From Emticicia sp. 21SJ11W-3 (GTDB lineage Bacteria; Bacteroidota; Bacteroidia; Cytophagales; Spirosomataceae): a stretch of 64,000 nt of DNA. Each line of letters opens with the position of its first letter. Position 1 is the stretch's first letter. Below the pieces are notes generated by a model. That model saw only the letters and a list, made by a program, of their open reading frames with translations. It was not told the DNA's origin and searched no databases. Below, piece after piece: positions 2,613 to 32,183 of this stretch. Location: positions 4,526,001-4,590,000 of the forward strand of contig NZ_CP092074.1 of the NCBI RefSeq assembly GCF_024138715.1. The letters are read 5' to 3'. The translations under genes and the position numbers were made by a program.

Positions 2613-4871
2613 ATGGCATTGAAAGATATAGTTAACCGCGAGCTTGTTAACCTTACCAATTGCGAACAAGAGCCTATTCATATACCGGGCAGTATTCAGC
2701 CTCATGGTTTTTTAGTAGCCACAGACACCAACGGGGTAATCAGATATTGCAGTGCCAATATCCATGAATTTACCCCGTTCAAAGCCGAAAACCTGCTTCA
2801 ACAACCTATTGAAGTGCTTATCGGAGCCGACCAGCTTTCGCAGTTCAGGCACTACCTTACTGAGCTCCAGCGCACATCGGCGGCGCCTCATATTCTTGGT
2901 ATAGGAAACACTCAGTTTCAATGTATGGTACATCAGGCAGAAGATACCTTTTTGTGTGAATTTGAGCCGGTTTCGGAGCATATCCCACGCGTATCGGCAG
3001 TTTATGACCAGGCCATTAACTTTGCACGGTACATGAGCCAGGCCATGACCCTGCAACAGCTTTGCCATAGCGTAGCTACAGAAATACGGGCATTAACCGG
3101 ATATGACCGCGTAATGGTGTATCGTTTCGATAAACAATATAACGGCGAAATATTTGCAGAAAGCAAAGTTGATGAACACGAGCCTTTTCTGGGTTTGCAT
3201 TATCCGCACACGGATATTCCTGTTCAGGCACGGCAGCTATACATCAGAAACCTGATGCGCCTGATAGTAGATGTTAATTACACCCCTGTACCGATACTTA
3301 CTAAAGAAAACAGCAGCAACAAAGACCTAGACCTCAGCTGCTCAACATTGCGCAGCGTATCGCCTATTCATGTGCAGTACCTGAAAAACATTGGTGTAAG
3401 CGCCACACTAACTATTTCTCTTTTGCACGAGGGCAAGCTGTGGGGGCTTATTGCCTGCCATCATTACTCGGCCAAGTATCTTGACCATTACACCCGCATT
3501 ACAGCGCAGTTGCAGGGACATTTTCTAACATCACAGATTCAGGTTCGGGAAATGGCCGAAGGTTACGCCGTGGCGGCCAGAATAAACACCTCTTTAGAGA
3601 CTTTACTGAACAAAACATTTGTACCCGAAAGAGCCTCTTTACAAGCATTGGTAAATCAGCCTCAGATACTTGAAATATGCCATGCCGCAGGCGTAGCGGT
3701 GATACTGAACAATGTTGTATACAAAGCAGGAAAAACACCTGACGACCCGTTAATTCTGCAAATTGCAGAGCTGGCCAGACAAAAAGCAGCAAACGGCATT
3801 TTTAACACCTCGGCACTTTCTGAAGATTTTCCTGAAGCCTTAGAATGGTGTTCGGTGGCCTCTGGTATATTGTATTACCAGCTGGGGGTAGTGCATAATG
3901 AAGCCATAGTCTGGTTCAGACCAGAAAGCCTTCAGACTATTAACTGGAGCGGAGACCCTGAAAAAGCCATAATGAAAGATGTAAACGGGCTGTCGCCAAG
4001 AAAATCATTTGAAAAATACCAGCAGATTGTAAAATGCCGCTCTTACGACTGGACTCAGACAGAGCTGACCGCCGCCGCTACTTTTTCATATTCTATTCAG
4101 AAACTTATTACACTTATTCTGCTTACTGAAGAAGAAGCCCGCCAAAGAGAATTGACCAGACAACTGGAGGCATCGAACCTTGAATTGGAAAATATCAGTT
4201 GGATAAGCACTCATGATTTAAAAGAACCGTTGCGTAAAATACAATTGTTTTCGTCGCGCTTGTTGAACATTGACAAGAACCTATCGGCTGATATGAGCGC
4301 CACGCTCCAAAAAATGAATGCTTCTGCTAACAAAATGCAGAAACTTATTTCAGATATCACTAATTATTCCAGAATCAGGCATTCTGAAACAACACTCGAA
4401 AAAATTGACTTAGCTGCCCTGATTGATAAAGTAAAACAAGAGCTTGCAGAAGATATTGAAGAAAAAAACGCCAGCGTTGTTGCAGTTAATTTAGCTTTCA
4501 TAGAAGGCATACCCGTTATTGTGCATCAGTTGTTCAGCAACCTGATAGGTAATTCTATGAAGTTTATCAAAGATGGCGTATGGCCGAAAATAGTAATTAA
4601 GCAAGAGCAGGAGCCAGTAAAATCACCGGAACCTGACGACACAAAACTATACTACAAAATTACTGTTGCTGACAATGGCATCGGCTTTGAAAACGAATTC
4701 AGCGATAAGATATTCAAGATATTTACACGCCTACATTCGGCAGATAAATATCAGGGCACAGGTATAGGGCTTGCCTTGTGTAAGAAAGTCATGCAGTTGC
4801 ATAATGGATATATCTATGCAGAAAGCGGAGAAAATCAGGGAGCTGTGTTTACACTTTATTTTCCTGTTTGA
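2613..4871 (+). CDS. bphP: Bacteriophytochrome sensor histidine kinase
   Basis: A 752-residue cytoplasmic red/far-red photoreceptor kinase. Cys17 in the N-terminal NCEQEP segment is at the position of the biliverdin-attaching cysteine of bacteriophytochromes. A PAS region (about 20-120) is followed by GAF (about 140-310) with PHTDIP at 198-203, where D201 matches the conserved chromophore-pocket aspartate. The PHY region (about 320-500) carries the tongue motif PRKSF at 462-466. HisKA has H534 in STHDLKEPLRK. The HATPase has an N-box (SNLIGNSMKF), DNGIGF and GTGIGLALCKK. There is no fused receiver, which fits the separate receiver gene at 1547. Light-driven phosphotransfer to that receiver is inferred; the photochemistry (Pr- or Pfr-ground state) cannot be read from sequence. 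Confidence 0.96.
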   Translation: MALKDIVNRELVNLTNCEQEPIHIPGSIQPHGFLVATDTNGVIRYCSANIHEFTPFKAENLLQQPIEVLIGADQLSQFRHYLTELQRTSAAPHILGIGNTQFQCMVHQAEDTFLCEFEPVSEHIPRVSAVYDQAINFARYMSQAMTLQQLCHSVATEIRALTGYDRVMVYRFDKQYNGEIFAESKVDEHEPFLGLHYPHTDIPVQARQLYIRNLMRLIVDVNYTPVPILTKENSSNKDLDLSCSTLRSVSPIHVQYLKNIGVSATLTISLLHEGKLWGLIACHHYSAKYLDHYTRITAQLQGHFLTSQIQVREMAEGYAVAARINTSLETLLNKTFVPERASLQALVNQPQILEICHAAGVAVILNNVVYKAGKTPDDPLILQIAELARQKAANGIFNTSALSEDFPEALEWCSVASGILYYQLGVVHNEAIVWFRPESLQTINWSGDPEKAIMKDVNGLSPRKSFEKYQQIVKCRSYDWTQTELTAAATFSYSIQKLITLILLTEEEARQRELTRQLEASNLELENISWISTHDLKEPLRKIQLFSSRLLNIDKNLSADMSATLQKMNASANKMQKLISDITNYSRIRHSETTLEKIDLAALIDKVKQELAEDIEEKNASVVAVNLAFIEGIPVIVHQLFSNLIGNSMKFIKDGVWPKIVIKQEQEPVKSPEPDDTKLYYKITVADNGIGFENEFSDKIFKIFTRLHSADKYQGTGIGLALCKKVMQLHNGYIYAESGENQGAVFTLYFPV

Positions 4872-4873
4872 CT

Positions 4874-4917
4874 ACCGTGCCACGCTCTCTTTATGAAGAG
4901 GATAAGCGTGGCACGGT
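4874..4917. terminator. Bidirectional hairpin between convergent genes
   Basis: A 13-bp perfect stem (4874-4886 with 4905-4917) encloses a second short stem CTCTT/AAGAG. It lies in the 65-bp gap between the phytochrome gene and the convergent receptor gene, where a shared terminator is expected. Neither side has a long T-run. Confidence 0.65.
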
Positions 4918-4936
4918 TGAATTAATTCTCTATCTA

Positions 4937-7399
4937 TTAAAACTCTCCCTCAGCAGGTTCTTTTGTTTTCTTCTTAGCCTGATGCAGACGATAGTTAAAC
5001 GTCAGATTCACTTGTCTCAAACGCCCTTGTCCTCGGCTCTCCGTAATAAAGTTAGGCCCTTCGGTAATAGAACGATAAATCCTTGAGTTAAAAACGTCGC
5101 TCACATTCAAAGTCACTGTGGCATTGTTTTTCATGATATCCTTACTCACTGCCAAATCCATCACGGCAATGGCTTTTCTTCTTCCCTGAGGCGTTTGCTG
5201 TGGTGCCTCATAGTTACCACGTATCTGGAAATCGGTGTTATTCCAGAAAGTAAAGCGTGAGGTCATACGCGTAAACCAGCTGTAAGTATCACTTTTAAGG
5301 CTGGCATCAAAGTTAGCACCATTGGTAATGGCTCTGAAAAAGTTAAAGCTGCCATCCAGTTTCCACCATTTATAAGGCGTTAATGAGGTAGTAAACTCAT
5401 AGCCGAACGAGTTTTCAGTAGCCAGATTTTCAGGTCTTGTAAATGAATTACCGGCATCGTCCACTTTTCTGATACGTACTATCTTGCCATCGGTATATCT
5501 GTAATACAAAGATGAGCTGATAGACCCGCTCTCGAAATACTTGATATGACCCAACTCATACACATCCGTAAATTCCGGATTCAAATCAGGATTACCGCTC
5601 CAGAAGTTACGGCTGTCGCTAAAAGTTGAGAAAGGGCTCAGGTCATTATAAGTCGGGCGACGGATACGTCGGCTATAGCTAATCTGCATCGAGTTTTGTT
5701 TCGGAAACTCATAAGTAATATGCACACTCGGAAACAGGTTGTTGTACTTACGCGGGTTTACTTCATTGGTTTTTCTCAGCGTAGTGGTCACATTTGTCCA
5801 CTCTGCCCGAACACCTGCCTGATACGAAAACTTGCTCACTTTGTTACCAATAATACCATAAGCCGCATTGATGTTCTCTTCATAGAGGAAATCGTTTGTA
5901 AAACCTGCAATCGGGAACCAGACGTTGTTCTCACCTCTTTGTGTCAGCGAGAAATCGTTGGTCATATCGCGCGAGCTGCTTCTGGCACCCAATTCAAATT
6001 TGCCCTCTTTGGCAAACGGATGCGTGTAATCAGCCTGAAACAACAACTGTTTTTCGGTTTCATAATTCAGCGAACGTTGCAATATAGCCGGTATGTCAGA
6101 AGCACTGCCATCTGGTTTGTAGGTCTGCTGGTTATAGTACTGGTCAGAGTCCTCCCAGTTATCCAGGTACCTCACGTCTGCCGTCAGTTCATGGCCTTTT
6201 CTGGCAAACTTACGTTTGTAAGTAAGGGCATATTCAGCATTGGGTTCGGTTTCGGTTTCGTCTTGTGTACGGTTGGTAATACCGGTAGGGTTATTTACAT
6301 TGTTCAGGTAATCACGGTAGCGGATGTCTGAAAAACGTTTTCCTTTGCTTATTCTCCACAGGTACGAGCCCGTCAATGTATTGTTATCATTAAAGAAATA
6401 ATCAATACCTGCACGGGCACTGTTATTCTCACCTTTCAGTTTGTTGGTTGAGTTTTGCTGGGTTATGAGCGTTGAATCGCCCTGATAAAACTCCTGATAC
6501 AGCGAGTTTCTGCCCGGAGTATTTCGGTACGAAGCCGTATAATTAACAAAAAAGTTAAGGTTTTTACGCCGATAATTTACATTAGCAGCCAGGCCCAGGT
6601 TGGTAGGGTGTCCGGCAATTACATCAAACGAACCGTTAAAGCCTTCTTTTCGCTCTTTTTTAAGAATAATGTTAATGATACCCCCCATCCCTTCGGCCTC
6701 ATAGCGTGCCGATGGATTGGTAATAATCTCTATTCGTTCTATGCTGCTGCCTTGCAACTGCTGCAAACCACTTCCACCTTTAATACTCACCAGGCCCGAT
6801 GGCTTACCATCTACCAGAATCCTGACGTTATTACTGCCTCTCAGGCTTACGTTACCATCAATATCAACCGATAATGAAGGAATATTGGTCAGGATATCAA
6901 TGGCCGTGCCACCAGCGTTGGCCAAATCTTTACCTACATTGAAAATACGCTTATCGAGCGACATCTCCATTGAGCTTTTCTCGGCGCGCACCTCTACTTC
7001 ATTCAATACATTACTGGAGGTGGCTACTTTCAGGATTCCTAAATCATGCGAAGGATTATCAGGTGACAAAGAAAACGGAGCCGTTTTGGTGGCTTTATAT
7101 CCAATAAACTCCAGCAGCGCATAATAAGTACCAGATGGTGCATCAATAGAAAAAGCACCGGCATCGTCTGTAATATTACCGGTAACAAAAGAGCTGTCGG
7201 GCAATTTATACAGCCGCACACTGGCAAAGGCAAGGGGTGCGTTAGACTGCGCATCTACTATTTTACCTTTCAGTTTAAATTTCCCTGCATTCTGGGCTAA
7301 AGATTTTTCGGCTCCTAAAAAGCTAATCATTAAAACAACAATAAACGATAACGGTTTTGCGATTGAAAGTAAAGATTTGTATTTGATGATAATGTTCAT
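4937..7399 (-). CDS. TonB-dependent-receptor-like outer-membrane beta-barrel protein
   Basis: An 820-residue outer-membrane protein. A signal peptide (about 1-35, ending SLAQ) is followed by a carboxypeptidase-regulatory-like beta-sandwich (about 42-130), a plug-like domain (about 135-250, including NVRILVDGKPSG and NPSARYEAEGMGGIINIILKK) and a long beta-barrel rich in aromatic and Asn/Tyr strand patterns. It matches the Bacteroidota family usually annotated as outer membrane beta-barrel (OMP_b-brl_3) rather than SusC, and no SusD partner is adjacent. The SMP-30-like gene lies 44 bp upstream on the same strand, so they may share a transcript. The substrate cannot be told from sequence. Confidence 0.85.
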   Translation of the reverse strand: MNIIIKYKSLLSIAKPLSFIVVLMISFLGAEKSLAQNAGKFKLKGKIVDAQSNAPLAFASVRLYKLPDSSFVTGNITDDAGAFSIDAPSGTYYALLEFIGYKATKTAPFSLSPDNPSHDLGILKVATSSNVLNEVEVRAEKSSMEMSLDKRIFNVGKDLANAGGTAIDILTNIPSLSVDIDGNVSLRGSNNVRILVDGKPSGLVSIKGGSGLQQLQGSSIERIEIITNPSARYEAEGMGGIINIILKKERKEGFNGSFDVIAGHPTNLGLAANVNYRRKNLNFFVNYTASYRNTPGRNSLYQEFYQGDSTLITQQNSTNKLKGENNSARAGIDYFFNDNNTLTGSYLWRISKGKRFSDIRYRDYLNNVNNPTGITNRTQDETETEPNAEYALTYKRKFARKGHELTADVRYLDNWEDSDQYYNQQTYKPDGSASDIPAILQRSLNYETEKQLLFQADYTHPFAKEGKFELGARSSSRDMTNDFSLTQRGENNVWFPIAGFTNDFLYEENINAAYGIIGNKVSKFSYQAGVRAEWTNVTTTLRKTNEVNPRKYNNLFPSVHITYEFPKQNSMQISYSRRIRRPTYNDLSPFSTFSDSRNFWSGNPDLNPEFTDVYELGHIKYFESGSISSSLYYRYTDGKIVRIRKVDDAGNSFTRPENLATENSFGYEFTTSLTPYKWWKLDGSFNFFRAITNGANFDASLKSDTYSWFTRMTSRFTFWNNTDFQIRGNYEAPQQTPQGRRKAIAVMDLAVSKDIMKNNATVTLNVSDVFNSRIYRSITEGPNFITESRGQGRLRQVNLTFNYRLHQAKKKTKEPAEGEF

Positions 7400-28422: not shown

Positions 28423-28821
28423 TTAAAAGCCCTTTTTTTGTGGATACGCCCCTGCTTTTGTTCTCTGGTACTCTACCCAAAGGATGGTCAGGACACCCAG
28501 CGTGTAGGCCAGCATATCATACCACGAAAAGCTGCTGCCCAGGGCAACGGCCACCATTCTGTGCTTCTCCCAACCCATGCGATGCACAAAATGGAAATAC
28601 TGCGAGGCCTCAACCAGATAAGAGAACAACAGCACCGCCACCGACTCTGTTACAAAATGGGTGTTCCAGAACGTAAAAACGAAACAATAGACTAGAAACA
28701 CCACCAGATAGTCTCCCACAAAGGGCCTGACGAACGAATCATGCACATAGACGGCTATCATTACCTCAATAACGAAGAAAACAACCGCCAGCAATCCATA
28801 TTTAGGTCTGAAAGTAAACAT
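28423..28821 (-). CDS. DUF2809 family membrane protein
   Basis: A 132-residue inner-membrane protein with four predicted helices. RPFVGDYLVVFLVYCFV and LVEASQYFHFVHRMGWEKHRMVAVALGSSFSWYDMLAYTLGV are the DUF2809 hallmarks (Arg-Pro-x-x-GD and the Ser/Trp-x-Asp-x-x-Ala-Tyr region). I start at the ATG at 28821; the codon before it is a TTG. An exact -7 element (28847-28854) lies upstream. It is the first gene of a probable two-gene unit with the MpaB-like gene. The function of the family is unknown. Confidence 0.85.
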   Translation of the reverse strand: MFTFRPKYGLLAVVFFVIEVMIAVYVHDSFVRPFVGDYLVVFLVYCFVFTFWNTHFVTESVAVLLFSYLVEASQYFHFVHRMGWEKHRMVAVALGSSFSWYDMLAYTLGVLTILWVEYQRTKAGAYPQKKGF

Positions 28822-28846
28822 CAATAATTAAAAGTACTTTGTTTTA

Positions 28847-28854
28847 CAAAGTTA
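28847..28854 (-). promoter_or_regulatory. -7 element for the DUF2809 gene
   Basis: Minus-strand TAACTTTG exactly matches TAnnTTTG, 25 nt before the ATG at 28821. No TTG is found at the right -33 distance, so this is a partial match. Confidence 0.4.
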
Positions 28855-28981
28855 GTGATTGTTTTTGGATTTTGGAAAGGAGAATGTTTTTTTTCTATAC
28901 AAATGATGCTAAAAAGTAAAATTCATTAACTAATCTTAGATTCGAGGCTTTATATTTATTAAGTTGATTTGTAAAATGATT

Positions 28982-28995
28982 ATAACAATTGTTAT
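28982..28995. promoter_or_regulatory. 14-bp perfect palindrome upstream of the restriction-modification genes
   Basis: ATAACAATTGTTAT is a perfect palindrome about 50 bp before the methyltransferase -7 element. It could bind a controller or methyltransferase autorepressor. No controller gene is present beside it. Confidence 0.4.
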
Positions 28996-29043
28996 GTTTA
29001 TCAACTTTGTCTTTTTATGCTTTATTATTTAATGTAAAACCTC

Positions 29044-29051
29044 TACTTTTG
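29044..29051 (+). promoter_or_regulatory. -7 element of the restriction-modification operon
   Basis: TACTTTTG exactly matches TAnnTTTG, 23 nt before the methyltransferase ATG at 29075. No good -33 is seen at 19-21 nt. Confidence 0.5.
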
Positions 29052-29074
29052 AAAAATATAATAAGGCCTTAAAA

Positions 29075-30301
29075 ATGAAAATTATAGAATTAGATGACAT
29101 TGACAATATTCAAGTTGACGAAAATCAACTAGAATTCTATTTTACTCAATCTAGGGGTGAGCATTTTAATGTTTGGGATAAATCAGTAAAAGTAGAAGAA
29201 AATTTATATTACAATAATCACAATTTAATTACACAAAAAGGGGCAAAGAATAATGTAGTAAGACCAACTGTTGTTGAGTTATTCTGTGGATGTGGAGGAA
29301 CTTCAATGGGGTTTGAAATGGCAGGCTACGAAGTTATTTTAGGTTGTGACATTCATTCTCCATCTATTCAAACTTTTAAAACCAATCATCCCCGTTCAGC
29401 TACAATTCTGGGGGATGTTAGAAAAGTTGAAGCAAATTTAATCACAGAATTAACAAATAATCAAAAAATTGATGTACTTATTGCTGGTGTACCATGTCAA
29501 GGATTTTCCTTAAATAATAGGAAGCGTCATGAAAATGATGAAAGGAATTTACTTTATAAAGAGTTCATTAGATTAATTAAAGACTTACAACCGAAAGCAA
29601 TAGTATTAGAAAATGTTTCAGGTATGAAAAGTACAGGAAACTTTGTTAAGACAATTGAAAAAGATTTAAGTGAAGCAACCGGAACAACTGTAAAAAGCAA
29701 ACTGCTTTTTGCCCCCGATTACGGAGTTCCACAAAGAAGACAAAGACTTGTCTTTATAGGTGTACATGGGGAGGAGTTTAACTTTAATGATATCATAAAA
29801 ACTCATGGAGATACTACTGGCATTCCTTATGTAACTGTTAAGGAAGCTATTGGTGATTTGCCAAGTTTAAAACCAAATGAAGAATCTCTGGAATATAAAT
29901 GTGAACCATTTAGTGATTACCAAAGGTTAATGCGTAAAAATGTTGATGATAAAAATCTTAAGAATCATAAAGCTCCGAATCATCCTAAAGAAACAATAGA
30001 AAAAATTGAGAATACTAAACCAGGGGAGCCAATGTATCCTAACTTTAAACAAAGGATTAGACTTTCTTGGGAAAGTTTAAGCCCTACACAAGTATCTGGT
30101 GGAATTCGACCTCAATTTCAATTTGGACATCCAAGTGATGCCAGAGGGCTCACTATTAGAGAAAGATGCCGATTACAAAGTTTCCCTGATACGTTTGTTG
30201 TTAAAGGTGGAATAGTTCAAGGTAGAGTTCAAACCGGTAATGCAGTTCCGCCGTTACTTGCAAAAGCCATAGCACTTGCTCTTAAAAAATATATAATATG
30301 A
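29075..30301 (+). CDS. C5 cytosine DNA methyltransferase
   Basis: A 408-residue m5C methyltransferase, presumably the protective half of a restriction-modification system. Motif I (VVELFCGCGGTSMGF, 66-80), motif IV with catalytic C141 (GVPCQG), motif VI ENV (179-181), motif VIII (VPQRRQRLVFIG) and motifs IX-X (RGLTIRERCRLQSFPD; QTGNAVPPLLAKAIA) are all present and in order. A 65-residue N-terminal extension precedes motif I and the target-recognition region is short. The next gene starts within its stop (ATGA, 30298). Sample lines are about one-third G+C, clearly below the neighbours, suggesting horizontal acquisition. Target sequence cannot be read from the protein. Confidence 0.96.
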   Translation: MKIIELDDIDNIQVDENQLEFYFTQSRGEHFNVWDKSVKVEENLYYNNHNLITQKGAKNNVVRPTVVELFCGCGGTSMGFEMAGYEVILGCDIHSPSIQTFKTNHPRSATILGDVRKVEANLITELTNNQKIDVLIAGVPCQGFSLNNRKRHENDERNLLYKEFIRLIKDLQPKAIVLENVSGMKSTGNFVKTIEKDLSEATGTTVKSKLLFAPDYGVPQRRQRLVFIGVHGEEFNFNDIIKTHGDTTGIPYVTVKEAIGDLPSLKPNEESLEYKCEPFSDYQRLMRKNVDDKNLKNHKAPNHPKETIEKIENTKPGEPMYPNFKQRIRLSWESLSPTQVSGGIRPQFQFGHPSDARGLTIRERCRLQSFPDTFVVKGGIVQGRVQTGNAVPPLLAKAIALALKKYII

Positions 30302-31530
30302 ACTATAGAGTTTGGTATAGTACTGAAAGTTTTGCGGATTATATAATTGACAACACGGTCCTCTCGACTAAAAGCGTTACAAAAAAGAAAATGTATGAAA
30401 GTGATGCCAACAATGCAAAAAACTTTCATACCATGCCTGACCACATAAAAAAAATTCTTTATTTAGATGCTCCAGACATTATTGTTGAACTAGATTCAGA
30501 GCCTATTTTCTCAATAGAAGTTTCAACTGAAGCCGGAACGGGACATAATGTATTTCAAAGATTTGCGAGATTAGCGGCATCCGTTGAGAATAACGTGCCT
30601 GCATTTTATATTTATCCCGAGGCTGTGATTATTCATAGACAAGGAAATCCAACAAGATGGGATGCTATTAATGCATTAGTTTTTAAAGCTCTTGAAGATG
30701 TTATGAACATATATAGCATACCAGCATTATTCTATTACTTCCCGTCCGATTTTAAGACATATTCTAATCCAAATTCATCTCCAAATATTCAATCAAAAGG
30801 ATTAAAATATGATCGTAATATTAGCTATGCCGGAAGTCCAGATAGTGGAGATAGTGAAATGCGGCTAATGTTCGACGCAATAAATGAAGTTATATCGGTA
30901 TTTGAAACTGCTGGTATAGTCCAAGGCAGAAGTAACTTACTTAGTAGACGAGTTGTTATTGATAGAAGAAGCTTTATGCAACAAGAATATTTTTCAAAAA
31001 ATGGGAATCTTCAGATGTCTCCATTGACATCTACGATTAAAATACCAACAATTTATCTACTTAATTATTTATCTCAATATGAGAATAGCAATTATAAAAT
31101 TGGTGAGCTATTAAGAAGTAGAGATGAGACCATCATTTATTTTACTGATTCTAAGTTTCGAGGTGACCCATTTCCGGGAGCATTAGCAGCAATAGATTAC
31201 TTATGTACTAGACAAGGCAAAACATTTGAAGAAAGAAAATATAATTTAGTAATGGTATGGGGAAATCTTGTAAAAGATGAAACAAATAAAACACTACAAT
31301 TAACAAGCGCCAGAAGTTCTATTAATAATTTTACTAGTGCTGTTCAAACTAGTGAAGCCAAGAACATTCTGAAAAAATCTTATAATCAATTAGCACCAGA
31401 ACAGGTACCTCGTTATTACATGCAGGTTCGCTATGGGTCAACTTATTCAAAGGCTAAACATATAAGAGTATATTCATATTTTGCAGATGCAATCTTATTT
31501 TCCGATGGCGCATTATGGCGAGACGCTTAA
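30298..31530 (+). CDS. Putative PD-(D/E)XK nuclease-like restriction protein
   Basis: A 410-residue protein that I do not recognise as a named enzyme. A nuclease-like core near residues 55-95 reads APDIIVELDSEPIFSIEVSTEAG followed by TGHNVFQRFARL. This fits a PD-(D/E)XK variant: D60, E74-V-S76, with E78 and Q87. The rest is mixed helix/strand with no signal peptide or membrane segment. The start overlaps the methyltransferase stop by 4 nt, and the end overlaps the next gene by 16 nt, so all three are tightly coupled. The likely role is a restriction endonuclease subunit paired with the methyltransferase. Nuclease activity is inferred from motif plus context only. Confidence 0.65.
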   Translation: MNYRVWYSTESFADYIIDNTVLSTKSVTKKKMYESDANNAKNFHTMPDHIKKILYLDAPDIIVELDSEPIFSIEVSTEAGTGHNVFQRFARLAASVENNVPAFYIYPEAVIIHRQGNPTRWDAINALVFKALEDVMNIYSIPALFYYFPSDFKTYSNPNSSPNIQSKGLKYDRNISYAGSPDSGDSEMRLMFDAINEVISVFETAGIVQGRSNLLSRRVVIDRRSFMQQEYFSKNGNLQMSPLTSTIKIPTIYLLNYLSQYENSNYKIGELLRSRDETIIYFTDSKFRGDPFPGALAAIDYLCTRQGKTFEERKYNLVMVWGNLVKDETNKTLQLTSARSSINNFTSAVQTSEAKNILKKSYNQLAPEQVPRYYMQVRYGSTYSKAKHIRVYSYFADAILFSDGALWRDA

Positions 31531-31982
31531 CTGAAGAGCAGGTGACGAAATTTTTACTTTCTTGGTTAATTAATCAAGGATGGGAAATAATATGTTTTGA
31601 TTTCCCACAAAGTGGTACTGGGCAGATTTTACATCCAAATCAAAGTGTTAGAACCACTAGAAATAAAATGGCTATAATTCCTGATATAGTTGCAATAAAA
31701 AATGGAGTATGTATCTTTTTGGAAAATAAAGATCGCTTTGTATTATCTGATTTTCATAAAATTTCTTCCCTCAGAGCTGAGAATTACTATTCAGAAGCAA
31801 TTGAGAAATTGCTCAAAAATAAAGAAGTTGAGAAAATATACTTTGGAGTAGGATTACCTTACTCTAAATATGCGCAAACCAAAACTCTAGAAAATATTGA
31901 TTCGATTGATTTTGCTTTAATAATAGAGAATGGCGAAAAAACAGTACTGATAATTCATCAAATAGCAGAAATATTCATATAA
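31515..31982 (+). CDS. Small PD-(D/E)XK nuclease-like protein
   Basis: A 155-residue protein with a textbook PD-(D/E)XK layout. It has a helix with E7/E8 (TEEQVTKFLLSWLINQGWEI), then IIPDIVAIKNG with P56-D57, then CIFLENKDRF with E70-N71-K72. Its size is like Vsr mismatch nucleases, but Vsr landmarks are absent. It overlaps the 410-residue protein gene by 16 nt. Two nuclease-like genes beside one methyltransferase suggest either a two-subunit restriction enzyme or a cleaving and a nicking partner. It shares the block's low G+C. Confidence 0.7.
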   Translation: MARRLTEEQVTKFLLSWLINQGWEIICFDFPQSGTGQILHPNQSVRTTRNKMAIIPDIVAIKNGVCIFLENKDRFVLSDFHKISSLRAENYYSEAIEKLLKNKEVEKIYFGVGLPYSKYAQTKTLENIDSIDFALIIENGEKTVLIIHQIAEIFI

Positions 31983-32183
31983 TTGATTTACTGTTAAAAT
32001 TTCAAATCTGTAAATTTTATAATAAAATTCATATAAATTTGTCTTTAATTTTCAGTATCAACTTTATTGCTAATATCACAAGAATCTTCCCTAATCCAAC
32101 AACAAATTCCCCCTCCCCCACCCAAATCCCCAAATTTTTTAATATTTTTACCAAAAAACACTTCTTAAAAAAACATCTTCTTC

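What the first reader, a model, noticed from the sequence alone, without database searches (positions are those of the whole stretch)
29075..31982. Three-gene block: C5 methyltransferase plus two PD-(D/E)XK-like proteins
Sequence shows an intact m5C methyltransferase with a 4-nt overlap to a 410-residue protein and a 16-nt overlap to a 155-residue protein. Both carry nuclease-like cores (PD/E-V-S at 59-76 and PD/E-N-K at 56-72). Sample lines are about one-third G+C against about 45% around it. Established knowledge: type II systems normally pair one methyltransferase with one endonuclease; two-subunit or nicking-pair enzymes exist but are uncommon. I infer a heterodimeric or two-enzyme restriction system. 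The 155-residue protein has Vsr size but not Vsr motifs.
Basis: partly seen in the sequence, partly recalled or inferred. Interest (0 to 1): 0.72.

Follow-up and report, generated by a model that had tools for sequence, protein, structure and literature searches.

The report
Two-part restriction enzyme, one methylase
This is a compact three-gene bacterial defence module that very probably makes a DNA-cutting enzyme from two unequal protein parts, protected by a single DNA-marking enzyme where its known relatives usually need two.

Summary
Three overlapping genes encode an m5C methyltransferase (408 aa), a 410-aa protein and a 155-aa protein, in a G+C-poor segment. The last two are best explained as the large and small subunits of one Type IIT restriction endonuclease of the BtsI/BsrDI/BsmI kind. 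The 410-aa protein matches a PADLOC nicking-endonuclease profile; its predicted fold finds only BsmI in the PDB at E<=0.001; its D60...E74 motif has the spacing published for the BtsI large subunit (D58...E72). The 155-aa protein aligns with the C-terminal half of two single-chain relatives; the N-terminal half of one of them aligns with the 410-aa protein. The gene order is kept in 9 of 9 homologous loci found (Bacteroidota, Eubacteriales, one phage-like contig). The notable feature is the modification side: one m5C methyltransferase and no second one among the neighbours examined, whereas the two single-chain relatives have two and Type IIT systems in general have two. The likeliest explanation is a quasi-palindromic site, read asymmetrically by the nuclease and symmetrically by the methyltransferase, as published for some Type IIS systems. 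Activity, site and dimerisation are untested. New variant of a known kind.

The parts
29075..30301 (+). m5C DNA methyltransferase, 408 aa, with an N-terminal extension (NVWDKSVKVEEN in the window) before the catalytic domain at about residue 65
   Evidence: Pfam PF00145 E 3.3e-66; TIGR00675 over cut-off; alignment A3 of 9 copies
30298..31530 (+). ORF2, 410 aa: predicted large subunit (site recognition plus one strand-specific catalytic site)
   Evidence: PADLOC PDLC03392 'Type II nicking endonuclease' E 7.7e-6; predicted fold matches four BsmI entries, E 1.2e-8 to 3e-7; N-terminus matches one single-chain relative
30472..30525 (+). ORF2 catalytic motif, residues 59-76: P59-D60...E74-V-S76
   Evidence: D60 in 10 of 10 copies, E74 in 9 of 10 (L009 has lost that stretch); P59 and S76 vary (T for S in L007, L010, L011, L016); BtsIB motif published at P57, D58, E72
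31515..31982 (+). ORF3, 155 aa: predicted small subunit, catalytic domain for the second strand
   Evidence: profile matches the C-terminal domain of two single-chain relatives (24.8 and 25.2 bits; best of 1000 shuffles 10.1); predicted fold with weak matches to PD-(D/E)XK nucleases
31680..31730 (+). ORF3 catalytic motif, residues 56-72: P56-D57...E70-N-K72
   Evidence: P56, D57, E70, N71, K72 invariant in 9 of 9 aligned copies, L011 left out
30298..30301 (+). 4-nt overlap of methyltransferase and ORF2
   Evidence: same 4-nt overlap in 6 of 10 copies (window, L004-L008)
31515..31530 (+). 16-nt overlap of ORF2 and ORF3, probable translational coupling
   Evidence: 16 nt in 10 of 10 copies
28855..32115 (.). 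segment between the two stretches that match DNA of same-genus genomes; holds the block
   Evidence: matches end at 28854 (L047, L048) and restart at 32116 (L043, L044) or 32118 (L045); ORF2 in 0 of 10 other genomes of the genus

Best explanation
The block is a horizontally acquired Type II restriction-modification system of the IIT kind. ORF2 is the large subunit: it recognises the DNA site and cuts one strand through its N-terminal PD...E-x-S site. ORF3 is the small subunit: it cuts the other strand through its PD...E-N-K site and probably has no sequence specificity of its own (by analogy with BtsI/BsrDI). They act as one heterodimer, equivalent to a split single-chain enzyme. The m5C methyltransferase protects the host. 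Since only one methyltransferase is present, the site is most likely quasi-palindromic: asymmetric to the nuclease, symmetric and degenerate to the methyltransferase, so that one enzyme marks both strands. Shown: gene order, conservation, motifs, homology of the two halves to a fused enzyme, no second methyltransferase among the neighbours examined. Inferred: nuclease activity, dimerisation, which strand each subunit cuts, and the form of the site.
For: MT-ORF2-ORF3 in the same order in 9 of 9 homologous loci found; 16-nt ORF2/ORF3 overlap in 10 of 10 copies. ORF2: PADLOC nicking-endonuclease profile E 7.7e-6, and 1e-8 for the phage copy; the only PDB fold matches at E<=0.001 are four BsmI entries; motif P59, D60, E74 against published BtsIB P57, D58, E72, the same D-to-E spacing of 14. 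Split/fused relation: in the 589-aa single-chain protein L003/L055, residues 5-162 match ORF2 (27%, E 1e-6) and 405-552 match ORF3 (hhalign E 1.1e-7, 94%; two-sequence BLAST E 3e-5); HMM scores exceed the best of 1000 shuffles. Both single-chain enzymes lie behind two methyltransferase genes (L054's two confirmed by PADLOC). Own genome: the only other PF00145 match lies about 190 kb away beside its own Vsr-like ORF, and no PF01555 match passes the cut-off. The one-methyltransferase solution is described for BbvI and MlyI in PMC4081073.
Against: ORF2's model is of moderate confidence (pLDDT 70.8) and the BsmI superposition is loose (TM 0.42, rmsd 10.6). ORF3 has no PDB fold match at E<=0.001; BsmI is only its fifth match, behind R2 retrotransposon proteins and Hjc; no family hit over a cut-off. 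The ORF2 profile does not detect the second single-chain enzyme L054 (-3.3 bits), and hhalign gives ORF2 against the fused pair only 38%. No co-fold of the two subunits was possible. The ORF2 motif lacks the usual lysine. Type IIT systems in general carry two methyltransferases; this carries one. The quasi-palindrome step is analogy only. One partial PF01555 match below cut-off in the own genome (22.7 of 26.7 bits) was not followed, and other methyltransferase families were not searched there.
Confidence: 0.75

Rival explanations
1. Same heterodimer, but the methyltransferase marks only one strand of a truly asymmetric site, and the half-protected daughter sites are tolerated because cutting is slow or one methyl group blocks the committing nick.
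For: One methyltransferase in 10 of 10 copies; no second one found in the own genome in the two families searched that could be its partner.
Against: After replication one daughter would be wholly unmodified; known one-strand systems (recalled: MmeI, Type III) use other enzyme designs. PMC4081073 gives quasi-palindromes as the explanation for one-methyltransferase Type IIS systems.
Confidence: 0.12
2. A BslI-like enzyme: two different subunits in a symmetric tetramer on a fully palindromic site, for which one methyltransferase suffices.
For: PMC4081073 calls BslI an alpha2-beta2 enzyme, better thought of as palindromic, which would fit one methyltransferase.
Against: BslI has Cys4 zinc motifs (passage and reference title); ORF2 has 1 Cys and ORF3 has 2. 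Fold and fused relatives point to BsmI/BtsI-like enzymes.
Confidence: 0.07
3. ORF2 is a complete restriction enzyme and ORF3 is an accessory nuclease (a Vsr substitute repairing m5C deamination, or a resolvase-like protein).
For: ORF3 has weak Hjc-like matches; Vsr genes often accompany m5C methyltransferases (recalled).
Against: ORF3 aligns with the C-terminal part of fused enzymes. L004 has a true Vsr in addition to ORF3. The 16-nt overlap is kept in 10 of 10 copies.
Confidence: 0.06
4. A second methyltransferase encoded elsewhere protects the other strand.
For: Type IIT systems in general have two methyltransferases; only PF00145 and PF01555 were searched in the own genome, and one weak partial PF01555 match was not followed.
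Against: No methyltransferase among the 20 neighbour proteins of the nine loci given to Pfam or the three of the window; the other m5C gene belongs to another gene group; a phage-like contig carries the same three genes.
Confidence: 0.08

Closest known systems
BtsI / BsrDI (Type IIT, two unequal subunits)
   Same: Large subunit with an N-terminal PD...E motif at nearly the same residues (BtsIB P57, D58, E72) plus a small catalytic subunit
   Different: BtsI has two methyltransferases, M1 and M2; here one m5C methyltransferase. Site unknown. The BtsI and BsrDI sequences were not at hand for comparison.
BsmI (PDB 9f38, 9ezd, 9ez7, 9ez5)
   Same: Only PDB fold matches of the ORF2 model at E<=0.001; 9f38 also among the weak matches of the ORF3 model (E 9e-3)
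   Different: One chain in those entries (667-676 residues listed); here two overlapping genes. 10-11% identity in the alignments.
Single-chain relatives in L055/L003 (589 aa) and L054 (611 aa), PADLOC PDLC03439
   Same: N-terminal part like ORF2 (L055; L054 not detected), C-terminal part like ORF3 (both)
   Different: Fused, and behind two methyltransferase genes with TSPPY motifs, i.e. amino-methyltransferases by recalled motif
BspD6I / BstNBI (604-aa nickase plus 186-aa small subunit)
   Same: Large recognising subunit plus small catalytic subunit; Nt.BspD6I among weak fold matches of ORF3
   Different: No PDB sequence match at E<=0.01 for either protein; larger large subunit
BbvI and MlyI (Type IIS with one methyltransferase)
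   Same: One methyltransferase for a site the nuclease reads asymmetrically
   Different: Described there as Type IIS systems; not compared by sequence here

Membership tests
Type IIT restriction endonuclease (BtsI/BsrDI group) | Two different catalytic sites, here on two unequal subunits | tested here: met
   PD...E-x-S in ORF2 and PD...E-N-K in ORF3, conserved; sequence level only, activity not shown
Type IIT restriction endonuclease (BtsI/BsrDI group) | Homology to known members | tested here: inconclusive
   PADLOC nicking-endonuclease profile E 7.7e-6 for ORF2, BsmI fold, fused relatives; no PDB sequence match at E<=0.01 for either protein; BtsI/BsrDI sequences not at hand
Type IIT restriction endonuclease (BtsI/BsrDI group) | Asymmetric site, cleavage within or close to one side | not testable with these tools
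   needs enzyme assays
Type IIT restriction endonuclease (BtsI/BsrDI group) | Two methyltransferases ('in general', so usual, not defining) | tested here: not met
   one m5C methyltransferase in 10 of 10 copies; none among the neighbour proteins given to Pfam
m5C DNA methyltransferase | Catalytic domain PF00145 with PCQ and ENV motifs | tested here: met
   E 3.3e-66; PCQGFS and ENVSG invariant in the 9 copies of A3
Vsr mismatch endonuclease (ORF3) | Pfam Vsr profile PF03852 | tested here: not met
   no Vsr hit for ORF3 at E<=1
BslI-type heterotetramer | Cys4 zinc motifs | tested here: not met
   1 Cys in ORF2, 2 in ORF3
Archaeal Holliday junction resolvase Hjc (ORF3) | PF01870 over cut-off | tested here: not met
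   13.4 bits against a cut-off of 21.1

The most novel reading that the evidence does not exclude
A stable lineage of split BsmI/BtsI-type restriction enzymes works with a single m5C methyltransferase in place of the usual pair. It spread as a three-gene cassette across Bacteroidota, Eubacteriales and at least one phage, which would make it a natural one-methylase heterodimeric nicking/restriction enzyme with a quasi-palindromic site.
Probability: 0.6. Interest if true: 0.5.

Novelty: new variant of a known kind. Interest (0 to 1): 0.42.

Why it matters
Enzymes of this kind are a natural source of strand-specific nicking enzymes, since the large subunit alone can nick. A family with one methyltransferase should be easier to clone and protect than one with two (inference). 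It also gives a clean test of how one methylase can cover an asymmetric cutter. L054/L055 against this family is a natural example of related nucleases paired with quite different modification enzymes, fused in one lineage and split in the other.

Tried and rejected
Plasmid and phage collections: no tblastn match for ORF2 or, in plasmids, for ORF3; ORF3 was not tried in phages. PDB sequence searches gave nothing at E<=0.01 for ORF2 or ORF3 (best Hjc-like 2eo0, E 0.038) nor for the fused pair. The ORF3 profile over 296 genomes of the phylum gave three weak hits besides the window (E 0.004-0.006): L014 and L015 lie in ORFs that read as a glycosyltransferase and a methyltransferase (my reading), and L013 was not followed; I treat them as false. 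PADLOC PDLC03392 matched 1 of 395 genomes of the phylum, the window's own, and PDLC03439 2 of 395, the two single-chain relatives. The window's methyltransferase at E<=1e-80 matched 1 of 390, its own. The viral scan with the ORF3 profile found nothing, although viral locus L016, found with ORF2, holds an ORF3 copy. The viral fold library gave no match at E<=0.001. Pfam's Glyco_transf_8 hit of ORF2 (E 4e-4, below cut-off) and the HTH hit of the L016 small subunit (E 5e-4) I consider chance. No clean empty site was found: in the relatives examined the two flanks lie on different contigs, apart from one 45-bp match in L044. A recognition site could not be derived; the best solved methyltransferase matched at E 1.6e-29 and no site was inferred from it. 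The nearest plasmid methyltransferase (Thermus, 49.5%) has no ORF2/ORF3 match in the 8,982 bases fetched.

Rows dropped: L011's ORF3 is split into two frames and was left out of A2 and A5. L016 is not in A3. L009's ORF2 lacks 23 residues including E74 and S76, and its methyltransferase frame has no standard start codon by my reading; both were kept as they are. In one search, 653 and 733 of the 1000 shuffles had a listed score; the rest scored too low to list.
Full report
Observation. The block has G+C 0.329; 0 of 1106 overlapping windows of the same size elsewhere in the 64 kb are as low (mean 0.408, minimum 0.343), and third-position G+C of the two long genes (0.184, 0.227) is the lowest among 27 ORFs of at least 250 aa. 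The surroundings average 41%, not 45%. In 9 of 9 homologous loci, too, the block is poorer in G+C than its flanks, in some only slightly.

The methyltransferase. PF00145 E 3.3e-66 and TIGR00675 over its cut-off; the PCQ and ENV motifs are invariant in 9 aligned copies. It is a single m5C enzyme with an N-terminal extension.

Conservation of the block. One scan of the species-genome collection with ORF3 gave 8 relatives: six in records labelled Bacteroidota or members of it, two labelled Eubacteriales or Eubacteriaceae. A viral-contig scan with the ORF2 profile gave one more, L016. 9 of 9 carry methyltransferase, ORF2 and ORF3 in that order; in L011 ORF3 is split into two frames, and in L009 ORF2 lacks 23 residues including the catalytic E and S. 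ORF2 is 52-71% identical to the window's copy and ORF3 45-58%, L011 left out for ORF3. ORF3 begins 16 nt before the end of ORF2 in 10 of 10 copies (ATG in 9, TTG in L010). L016 is phage-like: beside the block are a terminase large subunit (PHROG E 3.5e-33) and a possible scaffolding protein (E 9e-5). In the window's phylum the system is rare: ORF2 matched 2 of 395 genomes, the window's own and one fused relative, and 0 of 10 other genomes of the same genus have it. Matches to same-genus DNA end at 28854 and restart at 32116. All this fits a mobile cassette.

ORF2. PADLOC's 'Type II nicking endonuclease' profile matches residues 40-134 (E 7.7e-6), better in the phage copy (E 1e-8). An AlphaFold2 model from 10 sequences (pLDDT 70.8, pTM 0.74) matches four PDB entries at E<=0.001, all BsmI (E 1.2e-8 to 3e-7, probability 1.00). 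The best has TM-score 0.42 and rmsd 10.6, so this is fold-level evidence with uncertain domain placement. The motif P59-D60-x13-E74 has the same D-to-E spacing as the motif published for the BtsI large subunit, P57, D58, E72 (PMC2909958, parts 1 and 2 of 3 read). D60 is kept in 10 of 10 copies and E74 in 9; P59 varies in L011 and L016; the third position is S or T (T in L007, L010, L011, L016), not the usual K.

ORF3. Family libraries give nothing over a cut-off. The model is good (pLDDT 82.5, pTM 0.81), but none of its PDB matches reaches E<=0.001: R2 retrotransposon proteins, Hjc, BsmI (rank 5), Nt.BspD6I, FokI, McrBC, arenavirus endonucleases, largely PD-(D/E)XK-type nucleases by my recall. 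P56, D57, E70, N71, K72 are invariant in 9 of 9 aligned copies.

The two halves belong together. A 589-aa protein in another genome of the phylum (L003/L055) matches ORF2 at its N-terminus (27% over 168 columns, E 1e-6) and ORF3 at its C-terminus (two-sequence BLAST E 3e-5; hhalign 94%, E 1.1e-7, residues 405-552). A second single-chain protein (L054, 611 aa) matches the ORF3 profile at 25.2 bits and L055 at 24.8; the best of 1000 shuffled proteins reached 10.1. The ORF2 profile detects L055 (23.4 bits; best shuffle 6.4) but not L054 (-3.3 bits), and hhalign gives ORF2 against the pair only 38% (E 3e-4). Both single-chain enzymes match PADLOC PDLC03439 'Type II restriction enzyme'. The window's pair therefore looks like a split form of such an enzyme.

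Mechanism. PMC4081073 (passages, and the whole Type IIT section) states that in BsrDI, BtsI and BspD6I the larger subunit recognises the whole site and cuts one strand while the smaller lacks specificity and cuts the second. I transfer this to ORF2 and ORF3; it is inference. The same section says Type IIT enzymes are in general accompanied by two methyltransferases. The two single-chain relatives here do lie behind two methyltransferase genes each with TSPPY motifs (L054's two were confirmed by PADLOC; L055's two were read by eye). The window's family has one. Pfam was given 20 neighbour proteins from the nine loci: four HTH genes, Vsr, DUF2809 and four phage neighbours and ten more, plus three neighbours of the window; none is a DNA methyltransferase. 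The other neighbour ORFs within 2.6 kb were only read by eye. In the window's own genome the only other PF00145 match lies about 190 kb away in a group with a Vsr-like ORF and a large ATPase-like ORF (labels by eye), and the one PF01555 match is partial and below the cut-off (22.7 of 26.7 bits, not followed); other methyltransferase families were not searched. The same review gives the precedent: a few Type IIS systems have one methyltransferase because the site is quasi-palindromic, asymmetric to the nuclease and symmetric to the methyltransferase (BbvI GCAGC/GCWGC, MlyI GAGTC/GASTC). I propose the same here. It is not shown.

Regulation and accessories. In 5 of 9 homologous loci an XRE/HTH gene or its likeness lies just upstream of the methyltransferase (L004, L005, L007, L008 by Pfam; a diverged likeness in L006, 37% by tblastn), as with control (C) proteins; it was not found in the stretch upstream in the window, L009, L010, L011 or L016 at E 0.01. 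L004 also has a Vsr gene (E 1.2e-28).

Comparison and novelty. It works, as far as can be told, like BtsI/BsrDI; it is filed as Type IIT-like, with asymmetric cleavage and activity untested. What differs is the single m5C methyltransferase. Six searches of the held library listed no paper that I recognised from title and abstract as describing a one-methyltransferase heterodimeric Type IIT system; that library omits most subscription journals, and REBASE, which may already list such loci as putative, was not at hand. Verdict: new variant of a known kind, moderate interest.

Noticed in passing
L016 (IMGVR_UViG_3300020112_001488), block 3778-6676: A phage-like contig with a terminase large subunit carries the complete three-gene restriction-modification block.
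   Followed up: partly
L004 3159-3515, L005 3176-3514, L007 1252-1563, L008 3151-3513, and upstream of the methyltransferase in L006: XRE/HTH gene directly upstream of the methyltransferase, a likely control protein (diverged likeness in L006); not found upstream in the window and four other copies.
   Followed up: yes
L004 6451-7080 (-): Vsr mismatch endonuclease gene next to the block.
   Followed up: yes
L009 4853-6016: ORF2 copy with a 23-residue deletion removing the catalytic E and S; the methyltransferase reading frame has no standard start codon by my reading. A decaying copy, or an assembly error.
   Followed up: partly
G000:C1:4359500-4369500 (L061): Second m5C methyltransferase of the genome, beside a Vsr-like ORF and a 968-aa ORF that looks like a GHKL/MORC-type ATPase (labels by eye): apparently a separate defence group.
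   Followed up: partly
window 28423-28824 (-) and L011 3115-3507 (+): A DUF2809 gene lies immediately upstream of the block in both the window and a distant Eubacteriales locus, in opposite orientations. A relative of the gene is present in 11 of 11 genomes of the window's genus searched, so it may be coincidence.
   Followed up: partly
L008 1121-2887 (+): A phage-integrase-family gene lies upstream of the block, fitting mobility.
   Followed up: no
L058 (Acinetobacter plasmid pANC7914.1) 3007-6394: Two m5C methyltransferase genes flank a DUF3883 protein; possibly an asymmetric-site system with two m5C methyltransferases.
   Followed up: no
L045 1074-2936: In a same-genus genome the place upstream of the conserved amidohydrolase gene holds other nuclease-like ORFs (by eye), which suggests a variable insertion spot.
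   Followed up: no
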